From a virus, in the IMG/VR virus record IMGVR_UViG_3300027917_000167, positions 1 through 25,192 of that record: a stretch of 25,192 bases of DNA. One strand, given 5' to 3'. Within the stretch, counting starts at the first letter, position 1, and every line of letters begins with the position of its first letter. The notes under the pieces were generated by a model, which saw only the letters and a list, made by a program, of their open reading frames with translations, did no database searches and had not been told where the DNA came from. Of this stretch, positions 3,265 through 19,251 are shown piece after piece. The translations under genes were made by a program, and so were the position numbers.

Positions 3265-4467
3265 TTAACTTTTTGAATTTATTTTTTCAGCTTGAACAGC
3301 TCCTGATGCTGCTTGAATTACCTGCGGATCATTAATAACAACACCAGCGTATGCTAAAATTCTTAATATAACTTCTGTTTGCTCTGTTGCCAATAATTCA
3401 AACTGAGTTGAATTTGTAGAACTATAAACATATTGACCTAAACTTCCAATGCTAAAACCCCAAGCAACATCAGCTGGTTTTCTAATATATGATATTTTTA
3501 TATCAGAAGCGCTTGTGATAGATGTAGGGTAAACATAAACTCTAGTTTGACCAGTGTTAGAGCCTGAAACACCTTGTCTTGCTTGTTCATATAAATAAAC
3601 AGGGAAAGTTTCAGTTGGTCTAGTTAATGAAGATAAGTTTACGTTTAAAAAATCATTTCTAGTTATTCTCTCTATTTCTTTTTCGTCTCTATATATGACA
3701 GTACCAATTCTGTGAAGATTAGATGGAGCTAAGAAATAATTTTCTGTATTTATTGAAGATATTGTTAGTGTAGCATCTGTGTTACCACCAGTTACAGTTA
3801 CCGTATCACCTATAGAGTATCCAGATCCAATAGCGTTTATTACGGCTGAAGATATATTTCCACTACTATTTTCTAACAAAGTTATAGTGGCATCAACGTT
3901 TCCAGCGTTTATAGTTAAAATTTCAGAAGATAAATAACCACTACCTGGGTTTGCTATGTTGATACCAGTAATAACTCCACTATTAACAGACGTTATGTTG
4001 ACAGTTAATCCAGATCCACTGCCACCTGTTACGGCTATATTTGAAGCCACTGAATACCCAGTGCCACCATTTGACAAGTTAAAGTCAGGTATACTTATAG
4101 ATGTATTAACTGTTAACCCTGTCCCAAGCCCACCTGTTGTTGTAGCTACTCCACTTGAAGCAGAATAACCTGTACCTCCAGAAGATATCGATAAACCTGT
4201 CACAGCGCCAATAGGCACTAAAGTTGGAGTACCTATAGTTTTAAAAATAGAAATGCAATCATCAATATTTTTTTGACGATTAGCATATTCATTATCTGTT
4301 TGAGGCATGCGTAATTGCTGATTCATATCTTCAAAGTAACCTTCAAAGATTTCTAATTGTACCTGTGTTGCTAGCTTATTAAATTCATCAGGTGTTATAT
4401 ATCCACGCTGTTCTTTGTTAAGTATAGACAACACTGTATTATAAACAGTATTTACGTTTATTGCCAT
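3265..4467 (-). CDS. Ring/adaptor-like virion protein carrying four glycine-rich GSGY repeats
   Basis: 400 aa from the ATG at 4465-4467. An in-frame TTG eight codons upstream is less likely because ATG-GCA-ATA is preceded by the usual A/T-rich leader. Residues 1-80 (MAINVNTVYNTVLSILNKEQ, then a PDEFNKLATQVQLEIFEGYF stretch) and about 242-400 (NYFLAPSNLHRIGTVIYR onward) look like one conserved phage core, probably a ring or head-tail adaptor protein. Between them, residues about 85-241 contain four repeats of roughly 39 residues, marked by GGTGYS at 97 and 134, GSGYLS at 175 and GSGYSI at 214, each followed by a V-TGG-x-GLTVN-type strand pair. Such repeats are common in structural proteins of marine phages and probably form a beta-rich surface domain. 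The exact role is not established from sequence. Confidence 0.55.
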   Translation of the reverse strand: MAINVNTVYNTVLSILNKEQRGYITPDEFNKLATQVQLEIFEGYFEDMNQQLRMPQTDNEYANRQKNIDDCISIFKTIGTPTLVPIGAVTGLSISSGGTGYSASSGVATTTGGLGTGLTVNTSISIPDFNLSNGGTGYSVASNIAVTGGSGSGLTVNITSVNSGVITGINIANPGSGYLSSEILTINAGNVDATITLLENSSGNISSAVINAIGSGYSIGDTVTVTGGNTDATLTISSINTENYFLAPSNLHRIGTVIYRDEKEIERITRNDFLNVNLSSLTRPTETFPVYLYEQARQGVSGSNTGQTRVYVYPTSITSASDIKISYIRKPADVAWGFSIGSLGQYVYSSTNSTQFELLATEQTEVILRILAYAGVVINDPQVIQAASGAVQAEKINSKS

Positions 4468-4496
4468 TTTTATATTTTTATTATAATACAATGGAA

Positions 4497-5445: not shown

Positions 5446-6876
5446 TTAAGCAGTTGCAGCAGCAGTAAACAACACAAAGTTGTTAGCTCCTTGCACAACC
5501 AAACATCTTTCAGAAAGGAAGTGTACTTCCATTGCATCAAGATCAGAAGTGTAAGCACCTCCAGCAGAACCAGTCACCCAGTTTTTCATTCTACGATCAT
5601 CAGCTTGAGAAGCTCTGTATCGAGTATGCAAGAAAGGACGACGAATATTAGTTCCTAAAATTTGGTCGTAAACAGTTGACGTACCGGCTGGAACAAGAAC
5701 ACCTTCAATACCTGGCGTAGTTAAACCACCTCGAGTAGAAGCATCGTTCAAGTATTTCCAATCAGTTTTATAAAAATCATAAGATCCTCTACGGAAACCG
5801 CTAAATCCAAGATTTAAAGCCATTTCTTCAGAGTTTTCAAACAAACCGTATGCAGAACCAGCACCAGAGTTTCCTCCGTTTAATCCAGCAAGCATGTCAT
5901 CAAAATCTAAAGAAGTTTGTCTACCTAAGAAAAGCATGTTTTCTTCAATAGCTCCTTGAGTATCTAAGTTTTTAAGGATATTATCGAAAGCAGCTAAAGA
6001 GTCTGCTGATGTATTTCCAGCAAATCCTAAAACTTCGTTACCTCTTTCTTTGATAGCAGCAAAAAGACCTTGAGTACCTTCAACAGAAGCAGGAGCTCCA
6101 GTTGCAGTGTATAATTCACCCTCAACAACAGCCATTTCTAAATAATCTTCAAAACGCAAACGAGTTTCAGATTCTGCTTTTAAATACCAAAGGTATCCAG
6201 AAGTCCCGTCTTCGGTAGCAACTTCAACCCATCCAATTTGTGCCATATCAGATCCATCTACAGAGTATTTGTTTCTAATAATAATAGGCTTGTTATTGTA
6301 TTGAGTAAATTGAGGAGTTACAGAAACAGCATCTGGAGTAGTACTTCCTTTTCCATATTCAGAACCGTATACAAATATTTTCAAATCTGTAACGTCTGTC
6401 CAGTCGATATCACTAGTTAAATCATCTTGAGTATAAGGAAATACAGTTAAAACACCTGTTGCAATAACTGATGCGGAAACAAATAATTTTAACTCTTCTC
6501 CAGTAGATGGATTAATAGCAACTAAAGTGTCATTAGGACTAATAACATTTTGAATTGTACTTCCATTGACTGGAATAGTAAGTTCATTTGCACCAGTAAC
6601 TGAAACGTTGTCGTAAGAAATGTGTAAACGGTTTTGCTCTGACCATACAACTTGATCTGAAGTCATAGGCATTTCAGCTCCTACCATTCTTAAAAATCCA
6701 GATAACGTACGGTTTCCGTAACGCTCTACTTCAGCTTCGTAGATTTCTGGTAAATACTGCTGAGCAAAATCATTAGTTCCATCTGTAAAACTAAGATAGT
6801 TGTCTCCTGTAGCTTGTTGTTTTTGGCTAGGAGTAATTCCTCCAAAAAATGGAGTTGGGCTATAAGTAATTGCCAT
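5446..6876 (-). CDS. Major capsid protein
   Basis: 476 aa, ATG start, 13 nt after the scaffold-like gene. It follows terminase, portal and a scaffold-like gene and is followed by a strong terminator, the usual setting for the main head protein. The N-terminal region (DFAQQYLPEIYEAEVERYGN, then SGFLRMVGAEMPMTSDQVVW) and the later RRPFLHTRYRASQADDRRMK segment agree with capsid proteins of crAss-like and marine Bacteroidota podoviruses as I remember them. An HK97 fold is expected from the family. No cleavage site is obvious near the start, so maturation by N-terminal processing cannot be judged. It is a natural candidate client for the chaperonin encoded in this operon. Confidence 0.82.
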   Translation of the reverse strand: MAITYSPTPFFGGITPSQKQQATGDNYLSFTDGTNDFAQQYLPEIYEAEVERYGNRTLSGFLRMVGAEMPMTSDQVVWSEQNRLHISYDNVSVTGANELTIPVNGSTIQNVISPNDTLVAINPSTGEELKLFVSASVIATGVLTVFPYTQDDLTSDIDWTDVTDLKIFVYGSEYGKGSTTPDAVSVTPQFTQYNNKPIIIRNKYSVDGSDMAQIGWVEVATEDGTSGYLWYLKAESETRLRFEDYLEMAVVEGELYTATGAPASVEGTQGLFAAIKERGNEVLGFAGNTSADSLAAFDNILKNLDTQGAIEENMLFLGRQTSLDFDDMLAGLNGGNSGAGSAYGLFENSEEMALNLGFSGFRRGSYDFYKTDWKYLNDASTRGGLTTPGIEGVLVPAGTSTVYDQILGTNIRRPFLHTRYRASQADDRRMKNWVTGSAGGAYTSDLDAMEVHFLSERCLVVQGANNFVLFTAAATA

Positions 6877-6889
6877 AATTTTTTAATTT

Positions 6890-8098
6890 TTAGTTTTTAA
6901 ATTTTTTAATTCTTAGTTTTGTAGAATCTGCACCGCTGATAGCTCTAACTTTAAAGCCATTTATAAACACATCGCCATTATTAGAAGGCCTTGCTTTAGC
7001 ATCACTCAAGTTTTTTGAACTATCAACAACTTGTTTTACTGCGTCGGCTTTACCTTGCTCATAGAAATGTGCTGCAATACGATCTACGTTTTCAGCAGCA
7101 TACATTGCTTTGTGATAACCAGAATAATCTTTAACAGTGCCATTAGAATCTAGGAACTTCCCGATTAGGTTGTTAATATTAGACTGTTTTTCAGCAACCG
7201 TATTAGCATTTTGAATTTTATACCTATATTTCTTATCACCAACATTAATATCGAAACCTTCGAAATTTTCAGTGAAAAGCTTTTTAGTATTATTTTCAAA
7301 AACTTTTCGGTTTTGTTCAGCTTGCTCTTGCTGCTTATTATATCGATTGAAAAAGTCTATAGCTTTTTGAGCTTCTGGATTTACATTTGATCTCAACTTG
7401 ATTTCATCGTAATATTTTTCCTTTGTCTCGTTTAAAAAGCGTTTAGCTTTTGCAACTTCTTCTTTAAATGCAAGTTTTTTCTTGCGTATATCTTTTTCTT
7501 CATCTAAATCTTCATCATAATCAAAATCTTCTAATAAAAGTTCTAGATCTGAATTATCAAGATATGGTTTTTCTTTTTTATAATACTCTTTTAATAAAGT
7601 TTTATCATCTACATTAGAATAATCTGCATTAAGTCTAACATAGTCTTCTACAGTTCCACCTGTTTCTTCCATAAAAGAAACTAACTTTTCGATGTTTTCT
7701 GGTAATTGTTTACCTAAAACTTTTTCATCTCTAACTGCTTCTTTTAATTCTTTTTCAGTCTCAATAACCTCTTGAATAACCTCTTCAATAACTTGTATTG
7801 GGGTTTCTACTGTTTCTTCGGTGGACCGTACTTCTTCAACCACTCTCTCGCCGTTGCTACTGTCTTTGGGTTCTTCGACAACAACATTGCTATCATTTGT
7901 CTTTTGTGTTTGAATGGCATTTTCTTCGTTTTCTTTAGGTATAGTAACTTTTGTTACATCAGAAGTAACTTCGCTTTGAGTTACTGGTTTTTTAATTTCA
8001 ACCTTAGTAACTTCATTTTCTTTAATTAGTTTTCTTGGTGTAGTTTTCTTTTTGTTTTTTAAAGTAAATTCACCTTCTTGTTTTTCTTGTGTTGACAT
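6890..8098 (-). CDS. Probable capsid scaffolding protein
   Basis: 402 aa, ATG start, 32 nt after the portal gene. The protein is very rich in Glu and Lys. Residues about 1-120 are low-complexity with repeated E/V/T/K segments, probably disordered. Residues about 175-300 are highly charged helices, and the C-terminus is basic (TKLRIKKFKN). A charged helical rod with a basic C-terminal end that binds coat protein is the usual design of scaffolding proteins, and the position between portal and major capsid protein is the classical one. No protease motif is seen, so it is not evidently a fused head protease. The assignment rests on composition and position, since scaffold sequences are poorly conserved. 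Confidence 0.66.
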   Translation of the reverse strand: MSTQEKQEGEFTLKNKKKTTPRKLIKENEVTKVEIKKPVTQSEVTSDVTKVTIPKENEENAIQTQKTNDSNVVVEEPKDSSNGERVVEEVRSTEETVETPIQVIEEVIQEVIETEKELKEAVRDEKVLGKQLPENIEKLVSFMEETGGTVEDYVRLNADYSNVDDKTLLKEYYKKEKPYLDNSDLELLLEDFDYDEDLDEEKDIRKKKLAFKEEVAKAKRFLNETKEKYYDEIKLRSNVNPEAQKAIDFFNRYNKQQEQAEQNRKVFENNTKKLFTENFEGFDINVGDKKYRYKIQNANTVAEKQSNINNLIGKFLDSNGTVKDYSGYHKAMYAAENVDRIAAHFYEQGKADAVKQVVDSSKNLSDAKARPSNNGDVFINGFKVRAISGADSTKLRIKKFKN

Positions 8099-8130: not shown

Positions 8131-10518
8131 TTACATAAATGCTCCTAAACCTTGATCTGGTTCGTTTTCAAAGTCTATAGGTAAGCCATCATTTTTTCTC
8201 TGACTTATCATTTCACTTTGTTGTGTTGCTTGTATTTTCGTTCTTTTGTCTTTTCTATCTTCTTTAAAAGCTTCTTTTTGATTTACCACTTGCATTTCAA
8301 TTTGCTTTAACTGCATATCGTATTGAAACTGCTGCTGCATCTCCATCTGTCTTATTTGAGCAGCTTGTTGCATTTTTTGAAGTTCCATTTCTTGCTTAGC
8401 TTTTTCAATACTAACTTTTGTAGATGCTATAGCTTCTTGCTTTTGTACTTCAGCCATAGCTGTTCTTTCTGCTGTAGATGCTTGAGCATCTGCTTGTGCC
8501 GCTATATTAGCTTGTTGAGCTTTTTGATCACGTTCTATTTTAACCTTACGTTTTATTTTTAGCATTTGATTAGCTAATTTAAGGTTTTTAATTTGACGTA
8601 TATCAATAGCATCTTCTAAATCAATACCTCCAGTTTGTAAGGCAACTTGAATGTTTTGTTCTAATTGAACTTTTTCCTCTTCATCTGGTTCTAATTCTAA
8701 GAAAATACCAAAATCATGAAGATTTAAATCTATAACTTCATCTAACGACTTTACGTTGTAATTTGATATAGAGTTTTGTAACGATGCTCTAGTTAATGGA
8801 AAACGCAATGCATCACCTATTTTAAGTGAAACGTTTTCAGCTAGTTTAAGAGTTAAAAACAAACTAGACTGAACAATATGTCTAGTCGCTACGTTTGATG
8901 CGTTAGCAGCTAGTTTCTGTAATCCTACGAGAGTAGATTTATCAGGCGTACTACCATCTCTAGCTTCATTTAATCCTGTTACGTCACGTATCATTTGTAA
9001 ATAATATTGATACGTTTGTATTAAACTCTGTATTTTACCATATCCATTAGAACTGTTAAGTTCTTGAATAGGTACTTTTCCGTGATTTAATTCACCATCT
9101 TGAGTTAATGATCTACCTACAATACTACCAGTCTGGAAATACATATTAAGCGCTTCAGCTGGATTGTAATTAGTACCATTACCAAGATCAACTTCAGCTA
9201 AACCGTCCATATCAAGATAAACGCCGTCTGGCACCATTCTTGATAACACTTGTTGAAGTTTTAAATGCGTTATTTGAATCATATCAGCAAAACTAATACA
9301 TTTACTAACAATAGACTCTATTCTACCTTTGTACATTCTTGGAGCGCAAATAGCATAATTCATAGCAACCTTAGTAGTGTCAGCGTAAGGTCTTGACATA
9401 TTTTCTGCTAACTCCCATTTTAATAACGTGTCTGTACCTAAAACTAAAGCTCCATTATAAAGAACTTCTATTGTTCTAGAAACTCTTTCGAACATATCTG
9501 TTTCAGGTGGATTAAACGTGTCTGGCTTTTCAATAGCCTTCATTAATCCTTGGTCTGTTTGTTTTATTTTAAAAACTTGATTATGGTAGGTTTTATAGTC
9601 AAAATACAAAACTTGAACCGTATTTTCATCATAATCACCCCAGCCGGTTATATACTGTCTATTACCAGGCATGTTTTGAATACGCTCAAGTTCTTTATCT
9701 GAAATATTAGGAAATTCTTTTTTAAGTTCAGGTATTGTTATAGCTTTTATTTCACCTACGTAATATATATCTTCAAAGTTAGGATCTTCTGTATACGAAT
9801 AAACCATATAAGCAGGATCAACATAATCAACCTTAACGCCTTCAGCTATGTTAAAACTAGTTTTAGCAGCTGCAATGCCTAACACAGTTAAATCCATGTT
9901 AAGTCTTCTGCGTATTAAATTATATTTGTTTTGAGCAAATACAGTTGATATAGTTTCCTCTTCCGCAATTTCTATAGACTGTTTATAGCTTAATTGCATT
10001 TTAAGCTCTAACTCTTCTTTAGATTCTGGCACAATATTAGGATCTGGTGATTGATATAAGTCGATGCCTAATACAGCTTTAACTTCTTCAATATATTCTT
10101 TAGCTACCATATCTTCGTAAAGTCTAGAAGCGTATTGTGTTCTTTTCTTTACAGATTGAGGATCTTGAGCATAAGCTTTTATATCATATGTCTTTTGAGA
10201 TATACCGTTTACAACGATATCTACAAACTTAGATAAAATTGGAACTGGTTTCCAGTCTAAATTCAAATAAGATAAATCACCGTTTATAGATAATTCATCT
10301 TTATATTTTTGTATTGATTGCTCTCCTCGAGCATACAATCTTAAATTGTGAAAGTTTTTCCAATTAGTTAAATATCTATTACCATTTGTTCTACTTTGTC
10401 TAAACCACTCATATTCTATGGCTTGAGCAACTTGCTTGCCATATTCAAAAGTGTCTTTTTCTTCGTTACTTACAACTTGACTAGGAAAAGAACTGTTATT
10501 GTTAGTGTAAACGTTCAT
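8131..10518 (-). CDS. Portal protein with a long C-terminal coiled coil
   Basis: 795 aa; the ATG follows the terminase stop with no gap. The portal forms the twelve-subunit ring through which DNA is packaged. Supporting features are its place right after the large terminase, its length (typical of crAss-like and P22-type portals), and patterns I recall from crAss-like portals: the YARGEQSIQKYKDELSINGD stretch near residue 65, LNLDWKPVPILSKFVDIVVN, and HDFGIFLELEPDEEEKVQLE before the tail region. Residues about 652-770 are extremely rich in Gln, Ala, Met and Lys and should form a long coiled coil, as in the barrel of P22-like portals. It ends with a short acidic tail (DFENEPDQGLGAFM). It abuts terminase upstream and scaffold downstream. 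Confidence 0.82.
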   Translation of the reverse strand: MNVYTNNNSSFPSQVVSNEEKDTFEYGKQVAQAIEYEWFRQSRTNGNRYLTNWKNFHNLRLYARGEQSIQKYKDELSINGDLSYLNLDWKPVPILSKFVDIVVNGISQKTYDIKAYAQDPQSVKKRTQYASRLYEDMVAKEYIEEVKAVLGIDLYQSPDPNIVPESKEELELKMQLSYKQSIEIAEEETISTVFAQNKYNLIRRRLNMDLTVLGIAAAKTSFNIAEGVKVDYVDPAYMVYSYTEDPNFEDIYYVGEIKAITIPELKKEFPNISDKELERIQNMPGNRQYITGWGDYDENTVQVLYFDYKTYHNQVFKIKQTDQGLMKAIEKPDTFNPPETDMFERVSRTIEVLYNGALVLGTDTLLKWELAENMSRPYADTTKVAMNYAICAPRMYKGRIESIVSKCISFADMIQITHLKLQQVLSRMVPDGVYLDMDGLAEVDLGNGTNYNPAEALNMYFQTGSIVGRSLTQDGELNHGKVPIQELNSSNGYGKIQSLIQTYQYYLQMIRDVTGLNEARDGSTPDKSTLVGLQKLAANASNVATRHIVQSSLFLTLKLAENVSLKIGDALRFPLTRASLQNSISNYNVKSLDEVIDLNLHDFGIFLELEPDEEEKVQLEQNIQVALQTGGIDLEDAIDIRQIKNLKLANQMLKIKRKVKIERDQKAQQANIAAQADAQASTAERTAMAEVQKQEAIASTKVSIEKAKQEMELQKMQQAAQIRQMEMQQQFQYDMQLKQIEMQVVNQKEAFKEDRKDKRTKIQATQQSEMISQRKNDGLPIDFENEPDQGLGAFM

Positions 10519-12729
10519 TTAACTTATAATTTTTGATGTATATCCCCTGTTATCATATCTTTTTATTCCTAGATCTACAGGTTCCGTTTTTCTTTTATTT
10601 ACTGGTGTATATCTGTGTTTATTGCAAGCCATTAAAGCTAAACCAGAGCTAATAGACGCATCATGTGATGTTCTATTGTTAATATCAAATTTAGCCCAAT
10701 CTTCTAATGTTCTTTGAAAATACATATCACCATACCCAGTTTCTTTTAATCCTACAAAATTTTCTATATAAGACTCTATAGCCGCGGCGTGAGCTTGTTT
10801 TATATCTTCACTAGAGTTTGGTATTCCACCTATTTCTCTTTCTGTTATAGATAGTTTATTTCTAGCTCTATCAGGTCTATTCATTGAAAAACCCCTGTAA
10901 CCACGCTTTTTAAAATAATATAATAATCTAGGTTTATTATTTTCAGCTAATATTGGCATACCATAAAAAATACAAGCCATCAAAACATCTTCAAAAAATA
11001 TTTCAGCAGTTTGTGGTCTAGCTATATATTCTAAGAAAAAATGATTAGGTGGCACATCTTCCATTGAAAACTTAGTTAAACCGTGTAAAGATCCATTTGA
11101 TCCTCTTTTATCTACAGTCCCTGATATGTCATATGGATCACATCCAAAAGCACCTAAATGCTCATTACCTGGATAATAAACACCACTTTTATTAATTCTT
11201 TTATTTTGCAAATGAAAAGGCGGTATCCAACTTACTAAAAATCTACCATTGTTATTTGGTGTAAAAATAACTCTAGTATCTTGTTGTCCATTTTCCCATT
11301 GAAAACTACCACGCGTAACATTTATAGAATTACGCATATCTTCATTGAAATCAATTTGCTCGTATATTTTAGTTAGATTAAACAAAGATTCTTTTGTTTC
11401 ATCTCTAAAAGCATGCTTTTCAGTTCTTGGAAATTGTCTGTAAAATTCATTTAAAGCATCTTGATCTTGCTTTAATCCTTCTACTTCGTTCTCCCAGTAT
11501 TCTATTACACCTATTTTTATTTTTTCACCTTGTGGACCTTCAATTGGTTTGTCTGGAGTGTCGAATACAGGTATGCCATAAGCGTCAATGTATCCCTCGT
11601 AGTTCCATTCCATAGGTATGAACAAAGAATATAATCCTGAGCGAGTCTGTCCATTGGCGTTTCTTTTCGTAACATCTGAATCATCATAAAGTTTTTTAAA
11701 GTTTTTACCTCCTTTATCGTGAGCATTAGATGTTGAACCCATCATACACTTGCCTATAATCTTACTACCTAATCGTAAACAAGTTCTAGTTACTCGCCAG
11801 TTATTTAATATATTATTTGGCTTTTCCCACTTGCCACTTTCGTCGTGTACTAGCAGTTTTAATTTTTCACCGTCATAACTATTGTCTCCAGTGTTTTTCC
11901 AGTCGATGGTAGTATCGAGTCCCGATATTTCTTGTAGCTTTTCATTTGTTTCCAGCTTTCGTCTCGTATACTTTGTAGCAGGTACACGATATGCAAGCTC
12001 TGTTTTCGGCCTGTCCATACCGTCTTGAATTGGCTTAAAGAAAAAAGGGTAGTTGACTGATATTGGTACAACTTTGTCGGTAAACATTTTTTTAGCGTCA
12101 GGTCCTGATTTTGACAATATACCGAATCTAGAATCTGTTGATATCGTTGCTTGGTTAACTGTCTCTCCAGAAGCCATAAATGAAAATCCACTACGTCTGT
12201 TTTTAAGATAGCACATTCCGTAGCATCTATCGTCTGCTTTGCAAGCTTCCCAGAATATAAAGAATAATCTATTTGCTTCTCTATAGTCTGGTTTCCCAAC
12301 GTCAATTTTGCTCCACTGCAGGTACATGTAATGAGTACCAGTAATATAAGTAGCTTTATCTTTATTATAAAACCAAAAACCTTCTTCACGTCTGTTAAAT
12401 TCTTCGTCAATATAATCATACCATTTTTCTTTGAAGTCTAATGGATATTCTTCCCAATCAAAAACAGACTTTATTTTTTCTAATTCTTTTGGATAATCTA
12501 TATGACACCATTTATTACCTTTAAACTTATGTACTTTATTTTCTTTAGGTAAAGCTATTTTAAGGTTTTGTATTTCATATATTTCACCGATTTCACCAGT
12601 TCTGCTTATAACAATAATATCATAATCTTCGTTATAACCATATTTCCACTTTTTAGTTTTATTGTTTTTATCTAAAGTATGTGGTTGTATGTGATCTTCT
12701 AATACCTTGTATAAAGTTTGCTCGTACAT
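10519..12729 (-). CDS. terL: Large terminase subunit (packaging ATPase and nuclease)
   Basis: 736 aa; the ATG overlaps the preceding stop by 1 nt (TAATG). TerL drives DNA into the prohead and cuts the concatemer. The ATPase part shows a Walker A-like loop YLKNRRSGFSF (174-184), of the R-R-x-G type seen in divergent terminases rather than the classical GKS/T; a Walker B LKLLVHDE with D296 and E297; and a motif III GSTSN at 331-335. The nuclease part has a first acidic strand FGCDPYD (D531) and a final SHDASISSGLAL (D690). The length is large but within the crAss-like range. Two sizeable frames on the same strand inside it are shadows. Neighbours are a possible small terminase upstream and the portal downstream. 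Confidence 0.9.
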   Translation of the reverse strand: MYEQTLYKVLEDHIQPHTLDKNNKTKKWKYGYNEDYDIIVISRTGEIGEIYEIQNLKIALPKENKVHKFKGNKWCHIDYPKELEKIKSVFDWEEYPLDFKEKWYDYIDEEFNRREEGFWFYNKDKATYITGTHYMYLQWSKIDVGKPDYREANRLFFIFWEACKADDRCYGMCYLKNRRSGFSFMASGETVNQATISTDSRFGILSKSGPDAKKMFTDKVVPISVNYPFFFKPIQDGMDRPKTELAYRVPATKYTRRKLETNEKLQEISGLDTTIDWKNTGDNSYDGEKLKLLVHDESGKWEKPNNILNNWRVTRTCLRLGSKIIGKCMMGSTSNAHDKGGKNFKKLYDDSDVTKRNANGQTRSGLYSLFIPMEWNYEGYIDAYGIPVFDTPDKPIEGPQGEKIKIGVIEYWENEVEGLKQDQDALNEFYRQFPRTEKHAFRDETKESLFNLTKIYEQIDFNEDMRNSINVTRGSFQWENGQQDTRVIFTPNNNGRFLVSWIPPFHLQNKRINKSGVYYPGNEHLGAFGCDPYDISGTVDKRGSNGSLHGLTKFSMEDVPPNHFFLEYIARPQTAEIFFEDVLMACIFYGMPILAENNKPRLLYYFKKRGYRGFSMNRPDRARNKLSITEREIGGIPNSSEDIKQAHAAAIESYIENFVGLKETGYGDMYFQRTLEDWAKFDINNRTSHDASISSGLALMACNKHRYTPVNKRKTEPVDLGIKRYDNRGYTSKIIS

Positions 12730-13004
12730 TACTTAGACCTTCCTTCAGCAAAACCTTTGAAAGTTTTTTCTTCTTTAACTTCTTTAGGTTTATCATTCAA
12801 CAAATCTTGCTCGTGCTCTATTCTTGTAAGTATCTCAAACGCGTCAAATATTGCAAGTTTTTTAGTTGCAGCAGCATTTTTTAAACGATCAGCAGATATA
12901 TCATCTTCAGAATCTATTATAGGCTCTTTTGCAACCTTTATTAATTCATCAACTGCTTTGCGTCCAGCTTGGATTATATTTTTCTTCGTTTCCTTTACGT
13001 TCAT
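12729..13004 (-). CDS. Small helical protein upstream of terL, candidate small terminase
   Basis: 91 aa, the only ATG in frame. It overlaps the end of the upstream GroES-like gene by 56 nt, long for this genome, and its stop overlaps the terL start as TAATG. The sequence is predicted to be helical: KAVDELIKVAKE, then SADRLKNAAATKKLAIFDAF and EILTRIEHEQDLLND, with a charged disordered end. Small terminases usually lie just before terL and have an N-terminal DNA-binding helix pair and a central oligomerisation helix; size and position fit, but no helix-turn-helix is convincing. It may instead be an unrelated accessory protein. I am sure it is a gene, but not of its function. Confidence 0.5.
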   Translation of the reverse strand: MNVKETKKNIIQAGRKAVDELIKVAKEPIIDSEDDISADRLKNAAATKKLAIFDAFEILTRIEHEQDLLNDKPKEVKEEKTFKGFAEGRSK

Positions 13005-13554
13005 ACTTAATTACAATATCATTAGATTTCATACAATAAAGACGCTCTCCGTCTATTAAAAACTCCCATTCACTGTTAGGTGTAAATCCTACAAGATCTC
13101 CAGGAGTTATTTTAAAAGCCTCTAATGAACTATTTCCGTATTTTAGTATACCAACAAGGCTTTTTTCTTTATCTAGCGTTAAATCGCTATCATTTTTAAT
13201 TGGTTGAACAAAACATCTATCGTTGATAGTATGCCAACCAGTTTCATTTTTATATAAATATATTTGGTCTAAAGAGCAAAGATGATGATTATCTCTTAAA
13301 AATGATCTACTTTTTTTCTTTTCACCTCGTATATCATAAAAAGTTCTAAATACATTTTGATGTATTACAACTTTATCGCCTGGTTTTATATCCATTGAAA
13401 ACTCAGATGGTGTTTGTACAACCTCAGCTAGTCTATTAACAAATTTCCAATTTTCAATCTTGGTATTGACTATAAGATCTTTGTCACCGACTTTTACTAT
13501 ATTTTTATATTTTTCACCAACTGGCTTTACAATAAAATCATATAATGAGTTCAT
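12949..13554 (-). CDS. Putative tandem GroES-like (double co-chaperonin barrel) protein
   Basis: 201 aa, ATG start, TAATG overlap with the preceding gene. Two GroES-type patterns can be read in series. Domain 1 (about 5-102): YDFIVKP as first strand, a hydrophobic LIV tripeptide in a loop (27-29) where GroES has its mobile-loop IVL, AEVVQTP, IKPGDKVVIH (57-65), and a last strand HHLCSLDQIYLY (90-101). Domain 2 (about 111-185): NDRCFVQPI, LVGILKYG, ITPGDLVGF (149-157), and RLYCMKSNDIVIKY (171-184). These parallel GroES strands such as DRVIVK, KVGDIVIF and xxIMSESDILAIV. Domain 2 has no obvious mobile loop. Plant Cpn20 shows that tandem GroES domains can serve as co-chaperonin. It lies next to the terminase and capsid genes and 3.5 kb from groES/groEL. 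The fold is inference from pattern. Confidence 0.55.
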   Translation of the reverse strand: MNSLYDFIVKPVGEKYKNIVKVGDKDLIVNTKIENWKFVNRLAEVVQTPSEFSMDIKPGDKVVIHQNVFRTFYDIRGEKKKSRSFLRDNHHLCSLDQIYLYKNETGWHTINDRCFVQPIKNDSDLTLDKEKSLVGILKYGNSSLEAFKITPGDLVGFTPNSEWEFLIDGERLYCMKSNDIVIKYERKGNEEKYNPSWTQSS

Positions 13555-13781
13555 TAGTATTCTAAATCATATTCAACAGCCACAGCCATATTCTTATTAA
13601 ACTTTTTCCAAGGTAAAACCTCGTCATTTTTTTTAATGTAAATGCTGTACGATGAATCTTTCTCTTGAAATAAAATATAAGCTATTTCGTGACCACCGTA
13701 AACCTGCTGACCAACAGAATAATGCATGGCATCATTTTTGTAATCAGAACCAATACTTATTTTTCTAATTACCGTCTCCAT
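13554..13781 (-). CDS. Small conserved-looking phage protein, function unknown
   Basis: 75 aa from the ATG at 13779-13781 (METVIRKISIGSDYKNDAMH). The frame extends eight codons upstream to a GTG, but the ATG behind AAATACAAAAAG is the better start and reduces the overlap with the preceding gene to 17 nt. The sequence reads as a small beta-rich domain with alternating strands (YSIYIKKND, VAVEYDLEY), with no membrane segment and no recognised motif. It ends in a TAATG overlap with the GroES-like gene, so the two are probably translationally coupled. Function not recognised. Confidence 0.6.
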   Translation of the reverse strand: METVIRKISIGSDYKNDAMHYSVGQQVYGGHEIAYILFQEKDSSYSIYIKKNDEVLPWKKFNKNMAVAVEYDLEY

Positions 13782-15061: not shown

Positions 15062-15276
15062 TATTTTTTATTTTTAATCGGTGTTTCTATTACATATTTA
15101 GCGCCTGGAAAATAATAATCATAACCAGGGTACATTACTTTTGTATAACCTCTATCGTCTGTACCTAGAACTTTAAAATCAACTCCTTTCATTGTTATAT
15201 GACCTCCTTTAATTATATTTTGAGGCTTATTAACATCGGGGCTATTTCTTAAGTATCCTTTTTTAGATATTTTCAT
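15061..15276 (-). CDS. Small beta-rich phage protein, function unknown
   Basis: 71 aa, ATG start, with TAATG overlaps on both sides. The sequence KISKKGYLRNSPDVNKPQNI leads into GHITMKGVDFKVLGTDDRGY and a final VMYPGYDYYFPGAKYVIETP. The pattern suggests a small beta-domain, possibly a virion-associated protein. It carries one NSP element like the S-P motif of its neighbours. I do not recognise a named family. Its tight coupling to the neighbouring genes argues for co-production with them. Confidence 0.6.
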   Translation of the reverse strand: MKISKKGYLRNSPDVNKPQNIIKGGHITMKGVDFKVLGTDDRGYTKVMYPGYDYYFPGAKYVIETPIKNKK

Positions 15277-15584
15277 TACGCTCTTTTGTAAGCCTCAGCT
15301 TCCCAAGGCAAGTTTTTAGCACCTTCTTTCATTTGTGCTCTTGAATATTTTTTACCTTTCCAGTAAACAAAATTGTCGTCGTAATTTAAATCACCACGTT
15401 TCATTTGTTCAAGATGTATTTTTTCGTGAGCAACGACTTGCTTTACTTGATCTGGATGTAAATCTTTACTTATTAATATAGATCCATTGTTATTAGCTTT
15501 ACCCATAACACCATGCTCCATGTCTACCTTGTATATAGGTGTGTTGTCCATAGAATATGGTGGATTGGTTAATTTAAAAGCCAT
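15276..15584 (-). CDS. Small HExxH metallopeptidase-like protein
   Basis: 102 aa from the ATG at 15582-15584. The frame runs 11 codons further to a TTG; the ATG is preferred and leaves an 11-nt overlap with the preceding gene. Residues 53-57 are HEKIH in a helix (QVKQVVAHEKIHLEQMKRGD), the zinc-binding HExxH of metallopeptidases. The C-terminal PWEAEAYKRA supplies a Glu (95 or 97) that could be a third ligand. The middle (NFVYWKGKKYSR) is probably a strand pair. There is no signal peptide. It could process a virion protein, act in entry or lysis, or be a degenerate fold; which one cannot be told from sequence. At 102 aa it is a minimal protease domain. Confidence 0.6.
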   Translation of the reverse strand: MAFKLTNPPYSMDNTPIYKVDMEHGVMGKANNNGSILISKDLHPDQVKQVVAHEKIHLEQMKRGDLNYDDNFVYWKGKKYSRAQMKEGAKNLPWEAEAYKRA

Positions 15585-16026
15585 ATCTTTCGTCTTTACT
15601 TTCTTTTCCAGCTTCAAAACCTAAATCTGTATCAATATTACCAAAACTTTTAAAAGCTTTTGACCATTGTTTATCTTTTTCTTTTTGTTCTTTTTTTCTT
15701 TGCTGCTCTTTAAATCCAGCCATTATTTGACCTTGAAGATTTGAAAAAGCTTGACTCATCATTGGTATTTGAGTCAAAAGATCTTCGCTACCTCCAGCTC
15801 CAGAAGCATAAGCACCTTTCAATGGAGAATTATCACCTGATTCTTTTTTTTTAGCAAGTTCTTCAGCAAGTTGCTTTTGAAGCTTTAATTTTAACTCGTA
15901 ATCTGGAGCTCCAGTTTCTGCGCTTTCTTCTTTTTCTATCTTTGCGTATTTTTTAGCAAGAGCTTCGTATTGTTCATCGGAAAAAGGTCTTTTACCCATA
16001 AACTTTTGTGCAAATGGAGAACTCAT
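15574..16026 (-). CDS. Charged accessory protein with SPF/SPL motifs
   Basis: 150 aa from the ATG at 16024-16026, one base after the preceding stop. A longer frame begins 18 codons upstream, but that part overlaps the 64-aa gene. The start MSSPFAQKFMGKRPF closely matches MSSPFQKKFSAKSPL of the 181-aa protein, which supports this start. Residues about 20-70 are a charged helix (ALAKKYAKIEKEE, then LKLKLQKQLAEELAKKK). A second motif, NSPLKG, follows, then a Gly/Ala turn and a helix rich in Q and K. It has no membrane segment or enzyme motif. It may be virion-associated; function unknown. Confidence 0.62.
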   Translation of the reverse strand: MSSPFAQKFMGKRPFSDEQYEALAKKYAKIEKEESAETGAPDYELKLKLQKQLAEELAKKKESGDNSPLKGAYASGAGGSEDLLTQIPMMSQAFSNLQGQIMAGFKEQQRKKEQKEKDKQWSKAFKSFGNIDTDLGFEAGKESKDERYGF

Positions 16027-16027
16027 A

Positions 16028-16222
16028 TTATTTAAATGCTTTAGCTCGTGAAGTAATTGGGGTACCGTGTCCGCACTCAAATGGTGCTTTTAAAACTTCT
16101 AGTCCGTTTTTACCAGAACTAGATCCTTTTCCTTTTGGAAAATCAGTTAAATCAATAGGACCGTCCCAAACGGCGTTTTCACCTACTTGACCGTGTTTAA
16201 GTGGTTGTTTTTGTAGTTTCAT
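16028..16222 (-). CDS. Small hypothetical protein
   Basis: 64 aa, ATG start, 4 nt after the preceding gene and 1 nt before the next. The sequence is rich in Gly, Lys and Pro (DFPKGKGSSSGKNGLEVLKA) and has one Cys-His pair (ECGHGTP), not enough for a metal site on its own. It is probably disordered apart from a short C-terminal segment. I do not recognise it; coding status is supported mainly by its perfect fit into the packed operon. The opposite-strand frame of similar length is a shadow. Confidence 0.5.
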   Translation of the reverse strand: MKLQKQPLKHGQVGENAVWDGPIDLTDFPKGKGSSSGKNGLEVLKAPFECGHGTPITSRAKAFK

Positions 16223-16226
16223 ATTT

Positions 16227-16592
16227 TTATTTTTTATAACCTTCTATTCTTGCTTTAATAACATCTGCTTGAGTTATTTTACCGTCTCCAGTTTGATCTT
16301 TAAACATAGCTGGAGCATTTACAGCATCTTGTCTCATTTGTAAAGGACCAAATATGCCTTGAGCTACTGCTTGAGTTTGTGGCGAAAATGGATTAACCAA
16401 ACTAGATCCAGCTGGAGTAACATTAGTCATTGGTTGAACCATCGGTTGAGACATTTGTGGAGCTACTGGCTGTTGAGCCATTGCTTGATTCATAGGATCT
16501 ACGATACCAATTTGTTTCATTGGTGAATCGCTGTAGTGATTTGGAGAACCACATTTACAAAGAGGTGATCCACATTTTGAGCATTTTGCCAT
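16227..16592 (-). CDS. Zinc-knuckle / EF-hand-like two-part protein
   Basis: 121 aa, ATG start, 2 nt after the preceding gene. The N-terminus MAKCSKCGSPLCKCGSPNHY has four cysteines (C4, C7, C12, C14) that could bind one zinc ion. The middle is a Gln/Met/Pro-rich linker (MAQQPVAPQMSQPMVQPM). The C-terminus DQTGDGKITQADVIKARIEG matches a single EF-hand calcium loop of the D-x-T-x-D-G-x-I-x-x-x-D type followed by a helix, also like half of a dockerin. The S-P motif recurs (GSPLCK, DSPMKQ). A metal-binding head, flexible linker and calcium-binding tail suggest a connector, perhaps in the virion. No known family is recognised. Confidence 0.6.
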   Translation of the reverse strand: MAKCSKCGSPLCKCGSPNHYSDSPMKQIGIVDPMNQAMAQQPVAPQMSQPMVQPMTNVTPAGSSLVNPFSPQTQAVAQGIFGPLQMRQDAVNAPAMFKDQTGDGKITQADVIKARIEGYKK

Positions 16593-16594
16593 AA

Positions 16595-17038
16595 TTATCT
16601 GTATTTGTCTTTATTGACGTTATATATTGCTTTTGTTAAAACTTTATCAGTATATGTATTACCGCGTATTATACTATTAGAATCAGAAGTTGGTATATCT
16701 TCAACACCTAACATCATTCGATAAATTCTTTTTATCAACTGCTTGCATTTAATAGATGTTTTATATATATGGTATTTTTGAGTTGTTCTATTTCTATGTC
16801 TCCAAACAACTATCCAACCTTCTTTTAATAATCTATTCCATCTACGATTGTCCCAACTATAAGAATAAGCACCATCTTCAAAATCTCGTTTCTTAAACAT
16901 ATCCATGCAGTCTAAATAAATTAATAATTCAAGATCTGCATCGTTTAAATCATTATTCCTACAAGCCCATTTTCTTATGATTCTGTAGTGCTTCATAAGG
17001 TTGAGGTCTTTTATATCATCTGCCTCTAACCTTCTCAT
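16595..17038 (-). CDS. Winged-helix-like protein, possible DNA-binding regulator
   Basis: 147 aa; the ATG overlaps the groES stop as ATGA. After a basic N-terminal helix (KHYRIIRKWACRNN), DLNDADLELLIYLDCMDMF is a helix, SWDNRRWNRLLKEGWIVVWR reads as a recognition helix running into a beta strand, and TQKYHIYKTSIKCKQLIKRI as the wing strand and final helix. This order is that of MarR-like winged-helix proteins. The protein is strongly basic. It could regulate late genes or bind DNA during packaging. Translational coupling to groES suggests the same timing as the chaperonin. The fold assignment is by pattern only. Confidence 0.55.
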   Translation of the reverse strand: MRRLEADDIKDLNLMKHYRIIRKWACRNNDLNDADLELLIYLDCMDMFKKRDFEDGAYSYSWDNRRWNRLLKEGWIVVWRHRNRTTQKYHIYKTSIKCKQLIKRIYRMMLGVEDIPTSDSNSIIRGNTYTDKVLTKAIYNVNKDKYR

Positions 17039-17295
17039 AATACAACTACAACGTCTTGAACTTTAATAACGTGATAAGTTTCTTTTTCAACTTCTATTTT
17101 ATGACCAGCGTGTCTATCGTATAGTATTTTGCTACCTTCTTTCAAACTGTTTATTTCATCTCCAGCTGATACAACTGTAGCTTCTACATATCTAATATCG
17201 TCTCTGTGTGTTTCTGCCAAAAGAAGACCACCTTTTGTTTTGGTGGTACCTTCTTTGGTCTTTTTTATAATTATATTTCTACCTATTGCCTTCAT
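17035..17295 (-). CDS. groES: Phage co-chaperonin GroES (Cpn10)
   Basis: 86 aa, ATG start inside the last codons of groEL (17-nt overlap). GroES caps the GroEL ring. Visible elements: first strand IGRNIIIKK, mobile loop TTKTKGGLLLAETHRDD (about 17-33) with the GG and hydrophobic LLL that dock on GroEL, strand ATVVSAGDE, LKEGSKILYDRHAG, and last strand YHVIKVQDVVVVL. The bacterial protein is about 97 aa; the shortfall lies between VSAGDE and LKEGS, where E. coli GroES has its roof beta-hairpin, so the roof seems to be missing. T4 gp31 also lacks this hairpin, which gives a roomier chamber for its capsid protein. Order groEL-groES is the reverse of the usual bacterial operon. The stop overlaps the next gene as ATGA. 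Confidence 0.9.
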   Translation of the reverse strand: MKAIGRNIIIKKTKEGTTKTKGGLLLAETHRDDIRYVEATVVSAGDEINSLKEGSKILYDRHAGHKIEVEKETYHVIKVQDVVVVL

Positions 17296-18835
17296 TAATT
17301 CTTAAATTATTAATTACACAATCTGTAGATAAAATTGTAGTAGCTACTGAAGCTGCGTTTTGAAGAGCGCTCTTGGTGACTAGCAAAGGATCTATAATAC
17401 CTGACTTAGTCATATTTACCATTTTTCCTGTAACCACGTTGTAGCCTTGTCCTTTTCTATCCGGTGTTTTAACATCGTTAACTCCGGCGTTTTCTAGTAT
17501 TGTTTTATAAGGTGCTTTAATAGCTTCTAATAAAACTGTTTCACCTATTGACGAGGCTTTTAAATTTGTTGCGGCATTTAATAGAGCAATACCACCACCA
17601 GGAACAATCCCTTCTTTAATAGCAGCTTTAGTAGCACAGATAGCATCTTCAACTCTATCTGTTTTTTCTTTTAATTCTATTTCTGAATTAGCACCTACTT
17701 TTACTATAGCTATCTTAGCTGATAGCATTGCTAATCTTTTTTCTAATTTAACAAGTTTGTTAGGGTTTTTTTCTTCTAATAAACTTTGTTTTAAATCATT
17801 TATAACACTTAAAACTTCTTCTGAAGGTTCAGGAACTTGCAGTACCGTGTCTTCGTGTGAAGTTACACTTTTTATGCAAGTACCTAAGTGTTCTGGCTTT
17901 ATCATATCCATATCATCTCCAAGATCTTCGTTTATGATAGTAGCACCAGTTAGTAAAGAAAGGTCTTGAAGCATCTGTTGTTTATTAATTCCATAAGTTG
18001 GAGCATCAATAACATTTACTTTAATAGCACCTTTCATTTTATTCATTGCCAGAGCGGACAAAACACCTTGTTCCAAATCGCCTATAATAAGCAAAGGTTT
18101 ATTGTTTTTTATTACGTACTCTAGCACTGATTGTATTTGTCTAATAGTATCTACCGGTGATTCCAATAATAAAACCAGCGGTTTATCCAATTCAGCAGTC
18201 TTAGCCGCTTTATTAGTTATAAAATGTGAGTTTTTAAGACCTTTTTCGTATTGAACACCATCAACAACTTCGACGTATGTTTTACCGTCTGAAGATGTTT
18301 CCATCATTACAACGCCTGTATTATCAACTGATCTAAAAGCATCTGCTATAACACTACCAAGTTCAGAATCGTTGTTTGTAGATATAGTGGCAATTTGATC
18401 TATCATTTTACCTTTAACATCTACAGAAATAAGTTTTAAAAACTTAACTACATTTTTGACAGCTTTATTAATACCGTCTTTTAATTCTCTTGAGTTTGTT
18501 TTATCAGCTACTTTATAAGCTTCATTTAATATAGCGTGAGCTAAAACCGTAGCTGTTGTTGTGCCATCGCCCGCTTCTTTAACTGTTTTTCTAGCAGCTT
18601 CTTTTAAAAGCGTAGCACCCATATTTTCAACTGGATCTAGCAAGATTATTGAATCTGCTACAGTAACACCATCTTTTGTAATAATTGGTTTTCCAGTATG
18701 ATCTTCTAACATTACACATCGGCCGCTAGCTCCTAAAGTGGAGCTAACAGCTTTTGTGAGTTTTTCTATTCCTTTAAATACTTGATCTCTGGCTTCATCA
18801 CCAAAGTTTAAGTTCTTGACAATTGCGTCTGACAT
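17279..18835 (-). CDS. groEL: Phage chaperonin GroEL (Cpn60)
   Basis: 518 aa, ATG start behind a TTAAAT-repeat leader. A full group I chaperonin. Nucleotide-site residues are kept: ITKDGVTVA (D55), AGDGTTTATVLA (D90), VEDAICATKAA (catalytic D397), and PGGGIALL (412-419). The apical domain is recognisable (KPLLIIGDLEQG, INKQQMLQDLSLLTGA), but several residues that bind substrate and GroES in E. coli are changed: the Y199-L-S-P-Y203-F204 segment is LKNSHF (200-205), L234 corresponds to Q, V263-V264 to A-M; L237 and L259 are kept. The GGM-repeat C-terminal tail is absent (ends INEGNR). It is followed by an overlapping groES and preceded by a 36-aa membrane peptide. ATPase cycling is expected; client range is probably altered. 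Confidence 0.94.
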   Translation of the reverse strand: MSDAIVKNLNFGDEARDQVFKGIEKLTKAVSSTLGASGRCVMLEDHTGKPIITKDGVTVADSIILLDPVENMGATLLKEAARKTVKEAGDGTTTATVLAHAILNEAYKVADKTNSRELKDGINKAVKNVVKFLKLISVDVKGKMIDQIATISTNNDSELGSVIADAFRSVDNTGVVMMETSSDGKTYVEVVDGVQYEKGLKNSHFITNKAAKTAELDKPLVLLLESPVDTIRQIQSVLEYVIKNNKPLLIIGDLEQGVLSALAMNKMKGAIKVNVIDAPTYGINKQQMLQDLSLLTGATIINEDLGDDMDMIKPEHLGTCIKSVTSHEDTVLQVPEPSEEVLSVINDLKQSLLEEKNPNKLVKLEKRLAMLSAKIAIVKVGANSEIELKEKTDRVEDAICATKAAIKEGIVPGGGIALLNAATNLKASSIGETVLLEAIKAPYKTILENAGVNDVKTPDRKGQGYNVVTGKMVNMTKSGIIDPLLVTKSALQNAASVATTILSTDCVINNLRINEGNR

Positions 18836-18853: not shown

Positions 18854-18964
18854 TTATTTAAAAATGCTTATAATCCCTAATATTGCTAAACTATAAGCTA
18901 GTATGGTTGTTAATATCCCTACAACACCTATAGTTATAGCAATACTTGGTTTTAGTTTTTTCAT
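18854..18964 (-). CDS. 36-aa single-pass membrane peptide
   Basis: Short frame of 36 codons with an ATG at 18962-18964 and TAA at 18854-18856. The peptide is MKKLKPSIAITIGVVGILTT followed by ILAYSLAILGIISIFK. A basic N-terminus (KKLK) is followed by one long hydrophobic helix of about 27 residues, giving N-in topology by the positive-inside rule. The start overlaps the stop of the 96-aa gene as ATGA, which argues strongly for coupled translation, and groEL begins 18 nt after its stop. Possible roles are a small holin-like or antiholin-like protein or a membrane anchor; none can be shown. Confidence 0.68.
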   Translation of the reverse strand: MKKLKPSIAITIGVVGILTTILAYSLAILGIISIFK

Positions 18965-19251
18965 TTAAAGGTTTTTACTACTTTCGGTCCGTTTATAAAT
19001 TCAACTTTCCTTTGATAGTGTTCGATTGTTTTGTCAATCGAAGTTTCAGCGGCTTCTAATGTTTCTCTACGCGTAACATCAATCCATTGATCTTCTTTTT
19101 TTAGATCTTGGTATTCTGTTTGGTAGTAACCGTTTGGCAGCTGAACTATTCTCCAGTTTGCTTTATCAGCTATATGCTTCCAAAGCTTTAAACGATTTTC
19201 ATCTGGTTGTGATTGACTAGACCACGTATTAGTCTGATAAAAAAATGTCAT
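18961..19251 (-). CDS. Small hypothetical protein
   Basis: 96 aa, ATG start. The sequence is Trp- and charge-rich: KLWKHIADKANWRIVQLPNG, then YQTEYQDLKKEDQWIDVTRR and a C-terminal helix TLEAAETSIDKTIEHYQRKV. It reads as a small alpha/beta domain with a helical end; no family is recognised. Its stop overlaps the start of the 36-aa membrane peptide. The 90-nt gap before it (19252-19341) has no frame worth calling and only a weak 5-bp hairpin. Confidence 0.6.
   Translation of the reverse strand: MTFFYQTNTWSSQSQPDENRLKLWKHIADKANWRIVQLPNGYYQTEYQDLKKEDQWIDVTRRETLEAAETSIDKTIEHYQRKVEFINGPKVVKTFK

What the first reader, a model, noticed from the sequence alone, without database searches (positions are those of the whole stretch)
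17279..18835. Phage GroEL with intact ATPase residues but a remodelled apical binding face and no GGM tail
D55, D90, D397 and the GGG motif are kept, so the machine should cycle. At positions that contact substrate and GroES in E. coli, Y199/Y203 become L/H within LKNSHF, L234 becomes Q and V263-V264 become A-M, while L237, L259 and F204 remain. The GGM tail inside the cavity is missing. Active enzyme with changed contacts points to a dedicated phage client or to pairing with its own caps rather than to a simple copy of the host gene.
Basis: partly seen in the sequence, partly recalled or inferred. Interest (0 to 1): 0.72.

Follow-up and report, generated by a model that had tools for sequence, protein, structure and literature searches.

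The report
Old viral GroEL with own caps
A marine bacterial virus carries its own version of the protein-folding machine GroEL, with a binding face unlike that of its likely hosts and two lid proteins of its own, and close relatives of this set occur in many marine viruses, so it is an old, maintained viral machine and not a recently copied host gene.

Summary
The gene is on the minus strand (17279-18835, 518 aa). Catalytic aspartates and GGG are intact; Y199L, Y203H, L234Q, V263A, V264M and loss of the GGM tail are real and clade-wide. Among 150 distinct related viral GroELs, Q234 occurs in 149, M264 in 145, A263 in 129 and H203 in 128; in 80 bacterial GroELs the E. coli-like residues prevail. 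The apical domain has diverged most (30% identity to Bacteroidota, against 48% equatorial), whereas in bacteria it is at least as conserved. dN/dS is low, the viral sequences form one branch (support 100), and sampled Flavobacteriaceae genomes give at most 44% identity: old and maintained, not a recent host transfer. Three things extend the finding. Both equatorial loops carrying E. coli inter-ring contacts are shortened. GroES follows groEL in all 160 loci. A third gene, beside the terminase, encodes a two-domain co-chaperonin whose predicted fold best matches chloroplast Cpn20. GroELs in marine Flavobacteriaceae phages are already published, so the kind is known; the remodelled face, inter-ring deletions and two-cap set make it a variant. 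Pairing with its own caps is supported by genes only; client and ring number are untested.

The parts
17279..18835 (-). groEL, 518 aa group I chaperonin with remodelled apical face, shortened equatorial inter-ring loops and no GGM tail
   Evidence: PF00118 E 2.9e-60, phrog_5725 E 2.8e-134; residue tallies; AF2 model pLDDT 85, best VIA match GroEL 4ki8 Z 42.4 over 508 residues
17035..17295 (-). groES (Cpn10), 86 aa, overlapping the end of groEL by 17 bases; mobile loop GGLLL
   Evidence: PF00166 E 1.9e-13; groEL-groES order in 160/160 loci, same 17-base overlap in 123; loop glycine 24 invariant in 140 distinct viral GroES
12949..13554 (-). two-domain GroES-like co-chaperonin, 201 aa (Cpn20-like architecture); residues 11-40 a flexible loop
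   Evidence: phrog_13932 E 4.3e-23; AF2 pLDDT 88.5; Foldseek top hit chloroplast Cpn20 7ekq_R E 3.9e-6, VIA Z 9.5, 158 aligned; domain 2 vs GroES profile E 5e-8
12729..13004 (-). 91 aa protein at the position of a terminase small subunit
   Evidence: position between the tandem cap and TerL; 53% identical counterpart in MW202828; no family match
10519..12729 (-). terminase large subunit
   Evidence: phrog_6681 E 4.4e-169; 64% to MW202828, 44% to Elemovirus
8131..10518 (-). portal protein
   Evidence: phrog_6547 E 4.1e-149
6890..8098 (-). probable scaffold (402 aa), by position
   Evidence: between portal and major head protein; 37% counterpart in MW202828 and Elemovirus; no PHROG match
5446..6876 (-). 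probable major capsid protein (476 aa), a likely client
   Evidence: phrog_13704 head and packaging E 8.2e-92; order portal-scaffold-MCP

Best explanation
An ATP-driven group I chaperonin that a lineage of marine (probably Flavobacteriaceae-infecting) podovirus-like phages has kept for a long time as a complete machine of its own: GroEL, a Cpn10-type GroES made from the adjoining gene, and a two-domain Cpn20-type cap encoded in the head-assembly block. The most likely work is folding phage virion proteins, first of all the probable 476 aa major capsid protein, during late infection, with the apical face tuned to the phage's own caps and clients. Shown: gene content, conserved catalytic residues, clade-wide conserved apical substitutions, purifying selection, separate viral lineage, cap folds (sequence for GroES and cap domain 2, prediction for cap domain 1). 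Inferred: ATPase activity, cap binding, identity of the client, ring number, host.
For: ATPase residues kept in the viral relatives. The altered pocket is itself conserved: Q234, L237, L262 and M264 at 97-100% in 88 non-redundant viral sequences against an apical median of 75%. Apical/equatorial identity ratio to Bacteroidota is 0.61-0.93 in viruses, 1.01-1.27 in 60 other bacteria. dN/dS 0.04-0.15 over 11 close pairs, apical domain not consistently raised. Own GroES in 160/160 loci, with an aliphatic loop tripeptide, LLL in 104 of 140. Of 30 tandem-cap loci with enough upstream DNA, 29 carry groEL. The tandem cap sits next to terminase and portal in the window, Elemovirus, phi38:1 and MW202828.
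Against: No biochemical or expression data. The groEL-groES pair lies among uncharacterised and tail-fibre-like genes, about 3.5 kb from the head block, and in Elemovirus and Calle_1 it lies in other places and orientations, so tight coupling to head genes rests on the tandem cap alone. Cap domain 1 is not detectable as GroES by sequence profile (13%). GroEL changes could also serve host-protein folding.
Confidence: 0.7

Rival explanations
1. The viral GroEL still works with the host GroES, and the phage caps are accessories; the apical changes serve only client choice.
For: The phage GroES loop stays GG-aliphatic like bacterial loops, and L237, F204 and L262 of the pocket are kept.
Against: Own GroES is linked in 160/160 loci; Q234 and M264 alter positions that, from general knowledge of E. 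coli mutants, matter for GroES binding as well as substrate binding.
Confidence: 0.15
2. A general folding aid that rescues host and phage proteins under infection stress, with no dedicated client.
For: GroEL of bacteria is a generalist; the viral one keeps the whole fold (Z 42).
Against: Loss of the GGM tail, clade-fixed apical residues, and a second cap lodged in the head-assembly block point to special use.
Confidence: 0.2
3. Divergence by relaxed constraint: a passenger host gene decaying in a phage genome.
For: High divergence (41-44% to bacteria).
Against: dN/dS 0.04-0.15, open frames, conserved changed pocket, 160 loci with the pair kept.
Confidence: 0.02
4. Recent capture from a Bacteroidota host followed by fast change.
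For: The best bacterial matches include several Flavobacteriaceae, and the likely hosts are Flavobacteriaceae too.
Against: No bacterium above 44% among those seen; the viral branch is long (1.06) and supported 100, and does not fall inside Bacteroidota.
Confidence: 0.05

Closest known systems
GroEL of Flavobacterium phages Elemovirus (NC_062741)
   Same: Same three genes: groEL followed directly by groES, and a 180 aa co-chaperonin between a small protein and TerL; lacks the GGM tail and the 428-436 loop
   Different: 41% GroEL identity; pocket differs (Y199, L234 kept; Y203G, V263Y, V264A); groEL-groES pair is inverted relative to the head genes
GroEL homologues in 36 environmental viral genomes of putative Flavobacteriaceae phages, group 2 with Cellulophaga phage phi38:1 (Nishimura 2017, PMC5332604)
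   Same: Marine Flavobacteriaceae-type phages with a group I chaperonin; phi38:1 shares TerL, portal, MCP and the tandem cap with the window
   Different: The passages read do not describe pocket residues, inter-ring loops or caps; the window's TerL is 36% identical to phi38:1 and 64% to MW202828
Virioplankton GroELs (Marine et al. 2017, ISME J; recalled, not held here)
   Same: Divergent marine viral GroELs, gene order of large and small subunit linked to GroEL phylogeny (from memory)
   Different: I could not read it, so overlap of the clade with theirs is untested; the tandem cap is not among the points I remember
Phage EL gp146 and AR9 gp228 chaperonins (PMC7185714, PMC9598537)
   Same: Phage-encoded GroEL relatives; EL has a changed apical binding groove and double rings that dissociate into single rings with ATP, AR9's is described as single-ring
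   Different: About 26-27% identical locally; EL did not interact with E. coli GroES, whereas the window has two co-chaperonin genes
Chloroplast Cpn20 and Cpn10/Cpn20 caps (PMC5780408, PDB 7ekq)
   Same: Two head-to-tail GroES-like domains in one chain next to a Cpn10 type; best fold match of the phage 201 aa protein
   Different: 15-18% identity; phage domain 2 has a shortened loop; no shared ancestry shown
T4 gp31
   Same: Phage co-chaperonin for capsid protein folding
   Different: Single domain, used with host GroEL; weaker fold match (1g31_A VIA Z 6.6)

Membership tests
GroEL (group I chaperonin) | Cpn60_TCP1 domain above curated cut-off | tested here: met
   204.8 bits vs 34.3
GroEL (group I chaperonin) | NCBIfam GroEL subfamily model PRK00013 | tested here: met
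   474.3 bits vs cut-off 397
GroEL (group I chaperonin) | NCBIfam GroEL equivalog TIGR02348 (ordinary bacterial GroEL) | tested here: not met
   465.9 bits vs cut-off 582.1: a GroEL relative, not an equivalog
GroEL (group I chaperonin) | ATPase aspartates D52, D87, D398 and GGG | tested here: met
GroEL (group I chaperonin) | GroEL fold over the whole chain | tested here: met
   AF2 pLDDT 85.3; VIA Z 42.4, rmsd 3.4, 508 aligned to 4ki8_A
GroEL (group I chaperonin) | Double heptameric ring with staggered contacts | not testable with these tools
   Both loops with E434 and V464 are shortened in the clade; ring number needs microscopy
GroES (Cpn10) | Cpn10 domain and Gly-Gly-aliphatic mobile loop | tested here: met
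   PF00166 50.7 bits vs 21.1; GGLLL loop
GroES (Cpn10) | NCBIfam GroES equivalog cut-offs | tested here: not met
   39 bits vs cut-offs of 96 or more
Cpn20-type tandem co-chaperonin | Two head-to-tail GroES-like domains | tested here: met
   By predicted fold over residues 1-185; by sequence for domain 2 (phrog_13932) but not domain 1
Cpn20-type tandem co-chaperonin | Mobile loop in both domains (recalled, not read) | tested here: inconclusive
   Domain 1 has a 30-residue low-confidence loop; domain 2 loop is shortened
Cpn20-type tandem co-chaperonin | Caps a chaperonin ring | not testable with these tools
   needs binding assay

The most novel reading that the evidence does not exclude
A viral GroEL clade that has given up the stable double ring and works as single (or easily parting) rings, closed by a mixed cap made of a Cpn10-type and a Cpn20-type phage subunit, a bacterial-virus parallel of the chloroplast Cpn10/Cpn20 lid, dedicated to capsid protein folding.
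Probability: 0.25. Interest if true: 0.72.

Novelty: new variant of a known kind. Interest (0 to 1): 0.48.

Why it matters
How phages re-tool a generalist folding machine for few clients is open, and the best studied phage chaperonins (EL, OBP, AR9) are not known to have a lid of their own. This clade offers a natural experiment: an intact ATPase engine with a conserved but altered binding face, altered ring-ring loops, and two lid genes. Cultured relatives (Elemovirus on Flavobacterium sp. BAL314) make it testable. A two-domain lid outside plastid-type organelles would show that the Cpn20 arrangement arose more than once or is older than thought.

Tried and rejected
Decay: rejected by dN/dS. 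Positive selection on the apical domain now: not seen. Covariation of GroES loop and GroEL pocket: tabulated; acidic central loop residues go with L263 and A/S264 in a few related viruses, but these may be one event, so no claim. Domain 1 of the tandem cap as GroES by sequence profile: failed; it rests on predicted fold. Sister of the viral branch: unresolved (support 51), and the long branches elemo and Manatee Spring meet. 'Acinetobacter phage MD-2021a' hits are bacterial contigs by gene content, so not used as phage. Literature: no paper found on a tandem GroES in phages, but subscription papers are not held and Marine et al. 2017 could not be read.

Full report
OBSERVATION. The ORF given lies on the minus strand, 17279-18835, 518 aa; the plus-strand translation is full of stops. 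It is a Cpn60 (PF00118 E 2.9e-60; phrog_5725 E 2.8e-134). The window is a 25,192-base virus record. Aligned with E. coli GroEL, D55/D90/D397 are the catalytic aspartates D52/D87/D398 and GGG is intact; the pocket reads L199, H203, F204, Q234, L237, L259, L262, A263, M264 where E. coli has Y, Y, F, L, L, L, L, V, V. The C terminus ends NEGNR with no Gly-Met repeats.

MORE THAN CHANCE. Scans of viral contigs gave 160 loci with relatives at 53-95% identity, some of them the same contig fetched twice. Among 150 distinct viral sequences Q234 is found in 149, M264 in 145, A263 in 129, H203 in 128, L199 in 114. In 80 bacterial GroELs, 20 of them Bacteroidota, Y199 and Y203 are found in 79 each, V263 in 80, V264 in 71, and position 234 is always L, V, I or M. 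GGM-like tails: 0 of 161 viral, 73 of 80 bacterial. In 88 non-redundant viral sequences part of the changed pocket is itself strongly conserved: Q234 99%, L237 100%, L262 98%, M264 97%, against a median of 75% over apical positions; positions 199, 203, 259 and 263 are about as variable as the rest of the domain.

WHERE THE CHANGE SITS. Identity of the window protein to Bacteroidota GroELs is 48.5% in the equatorial, 47.8% in the intermediate and 29.9% in the apical domain. The ratio apical/equatorial is 0.61-0.93 in the viral sequences and 1.01-1.27 in 60 bacteria of other phyla. So the apical domain has been singled out, though some other phage GroELs (elemo, Calle) show a similar, weaker bias. 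Selection now is purifying: dN/dS 0.04-0.15 over 11 close pairs, and the apical domain is not consistently higher. The change is old and held.

ORIGIN. A 76-row tree (quick method, SH-aLRT only) puts 33 viral sequences on one side of a branch of length 1.06 with support 100; the sister group is unresolved, and long branches meet there. The best bacterial match is 43% in a limited scan and no listed match exceeds 44% in 299 Flavobacteriaceae genomes, 292 of which gave a match. A recent host transfer is not supported.

The E. coli segment 423-440 (18 residues, with E434) has 10-11 residues in the clade members compared, and 456-478 (23 residues, with E461, S463, V464) has 17-19; A109 becomes a charged or polar residue in most, R452 mostly K or N. 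The column of E434 is a gap in 150 of 150 viral sequences. These are, from general knowledge of E. coli GroEL, ring-ring contact sites. Altered ring pairing is a fair inference; single rings are only a possibility. Phage EL rings part with ATP (PMC7185714) and AR9 is described as single-ring (PMC9598537).

THE CAPS. Directly behind groEL, overlapping it by 17 bases, lies groES (86 aa; PF00166). This order, the reverse of E. coli groES-groEL, is found in 160/160 viral loci, with the same 17-base overlap in 123. The mobile loop keeps Gly24 in 140 of 140 distinct sequences and is mostly GGLLL. About 3.5 kb on, beside the terminase, a 201 aa gene matches phrog_13932 co-chaperonin (E 4.3e-23). Its AF2 model (pLDDT 88.5) matches best, among solved folds, the chloroplast Cpn20 chain 7ekq_R (molecule name) over residues 1-185, that is over both of its GroES-like domains (Foldseek E 3.9e-6; VIA Z 9.5, 158 aligned, rmsd 4.0). 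Domain 2 is related to GroES by sequence profile (E 5e-8); domain 1 only by predicted fold. Domain 1 has the long lower-confidence loop (residues 11-40), with conserved L27, N30, E34; domain 2 has a shortened loop. The gene sits with TerL and portal in the window, Elemovirus, phi38:1 and MW202828, and 29 of 30 tandem loci long enough to tell also hold groEL.

HOW IT MOST LIKELY WORKS. ATP-driven rings bind unfolded virion proteins on a changed apical face and are closed by phage caps; chloroplasts mix Cpn10 and Cpn20 types in one lid (PMC5780408), and the phage may too. The probable major capsid protein (476 aa) is the first candidate client by size and by gene context, as for T4 gp23 with gp31. 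Gene content, conservation and folds are shown; binding, client, ring number and activity are inferred.

KNOWN OR NEW. GroEL genes in marine Flavobacteriaceae phages are published: 36 environmental genomes of the phi38:1 group (PMC5332604). Marine et al. 2017 reported prevalent divergent virioplankton chaperonins; I could not read it and only recall its abstract. The NCBIfam equivalog for GroEL is not met although a GroEL subfamily model is. I therefore call it a new variant of a known kind. The conserved changed pocket, the shortened inter-ring loops and the two-domain cap are the parts I found no paper on, within an incomplete library.

HOST. Nearest named phages by TerL infect Flavobacterium and Cellulophaga, after an uncultured spring phage at 64%. 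GC is 33%. A Flavobacteriaceae host is likely but not shown.

Noticed in passing
window 12949-13554 (-): Two-domain GroES-like protein with Cpn20-type predicted fold in the head-assembly block; in the marine clade it ends in a conserved EEYNPSWAxSS motif that Elemovirus, MW202828 and phi38:1 lack.
   Followed up: partly
L251 (MW202828.1) 26934-28562 and 15273-17519: Uncultured phage whose TerL is 64% identical to the window but whose GroEL is only 35% identical: GroEL evolves much faster than the head genes or was replaced. Its GroEL also has a charged residue (E) at 234 and A at 263.
   Followed up: partly
window 17279-18835 (-), E. coli positions 423-440 and 456-478: Both equatorial loops with E. 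coli inter-ring contacts are shortened throughout the viral clade.
   Followed up: yes
L082 (Elemovirus) 11998-13560: Elemovirus GroEL has AGDSTTCTAV in place of AGDGTTTATV in the nucleotide-binding loop, unusual for a group I chaperonin.
   Followed up: no
L086 (CAKLQH020000021.1): Record named 'Acinetobacter phage MD-2021a' reads as bacterial chromosome by its gene content (glpD, pckG, groSL, acrB): probably mislabelled.
   Followed up: no
window 18961-19251 (-): 96 aa protein of unknown function just upstream of groEL, 87.5% identical in the contig of L002/L256, no clear family match.
   Followed up: no
window 3265-4491 (-): Virion protein (phrog_14543) with Gly-Ser-Thr-rich repeats at about residues 95-240 that match several long virion and baseplate families.
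   Followed up: no
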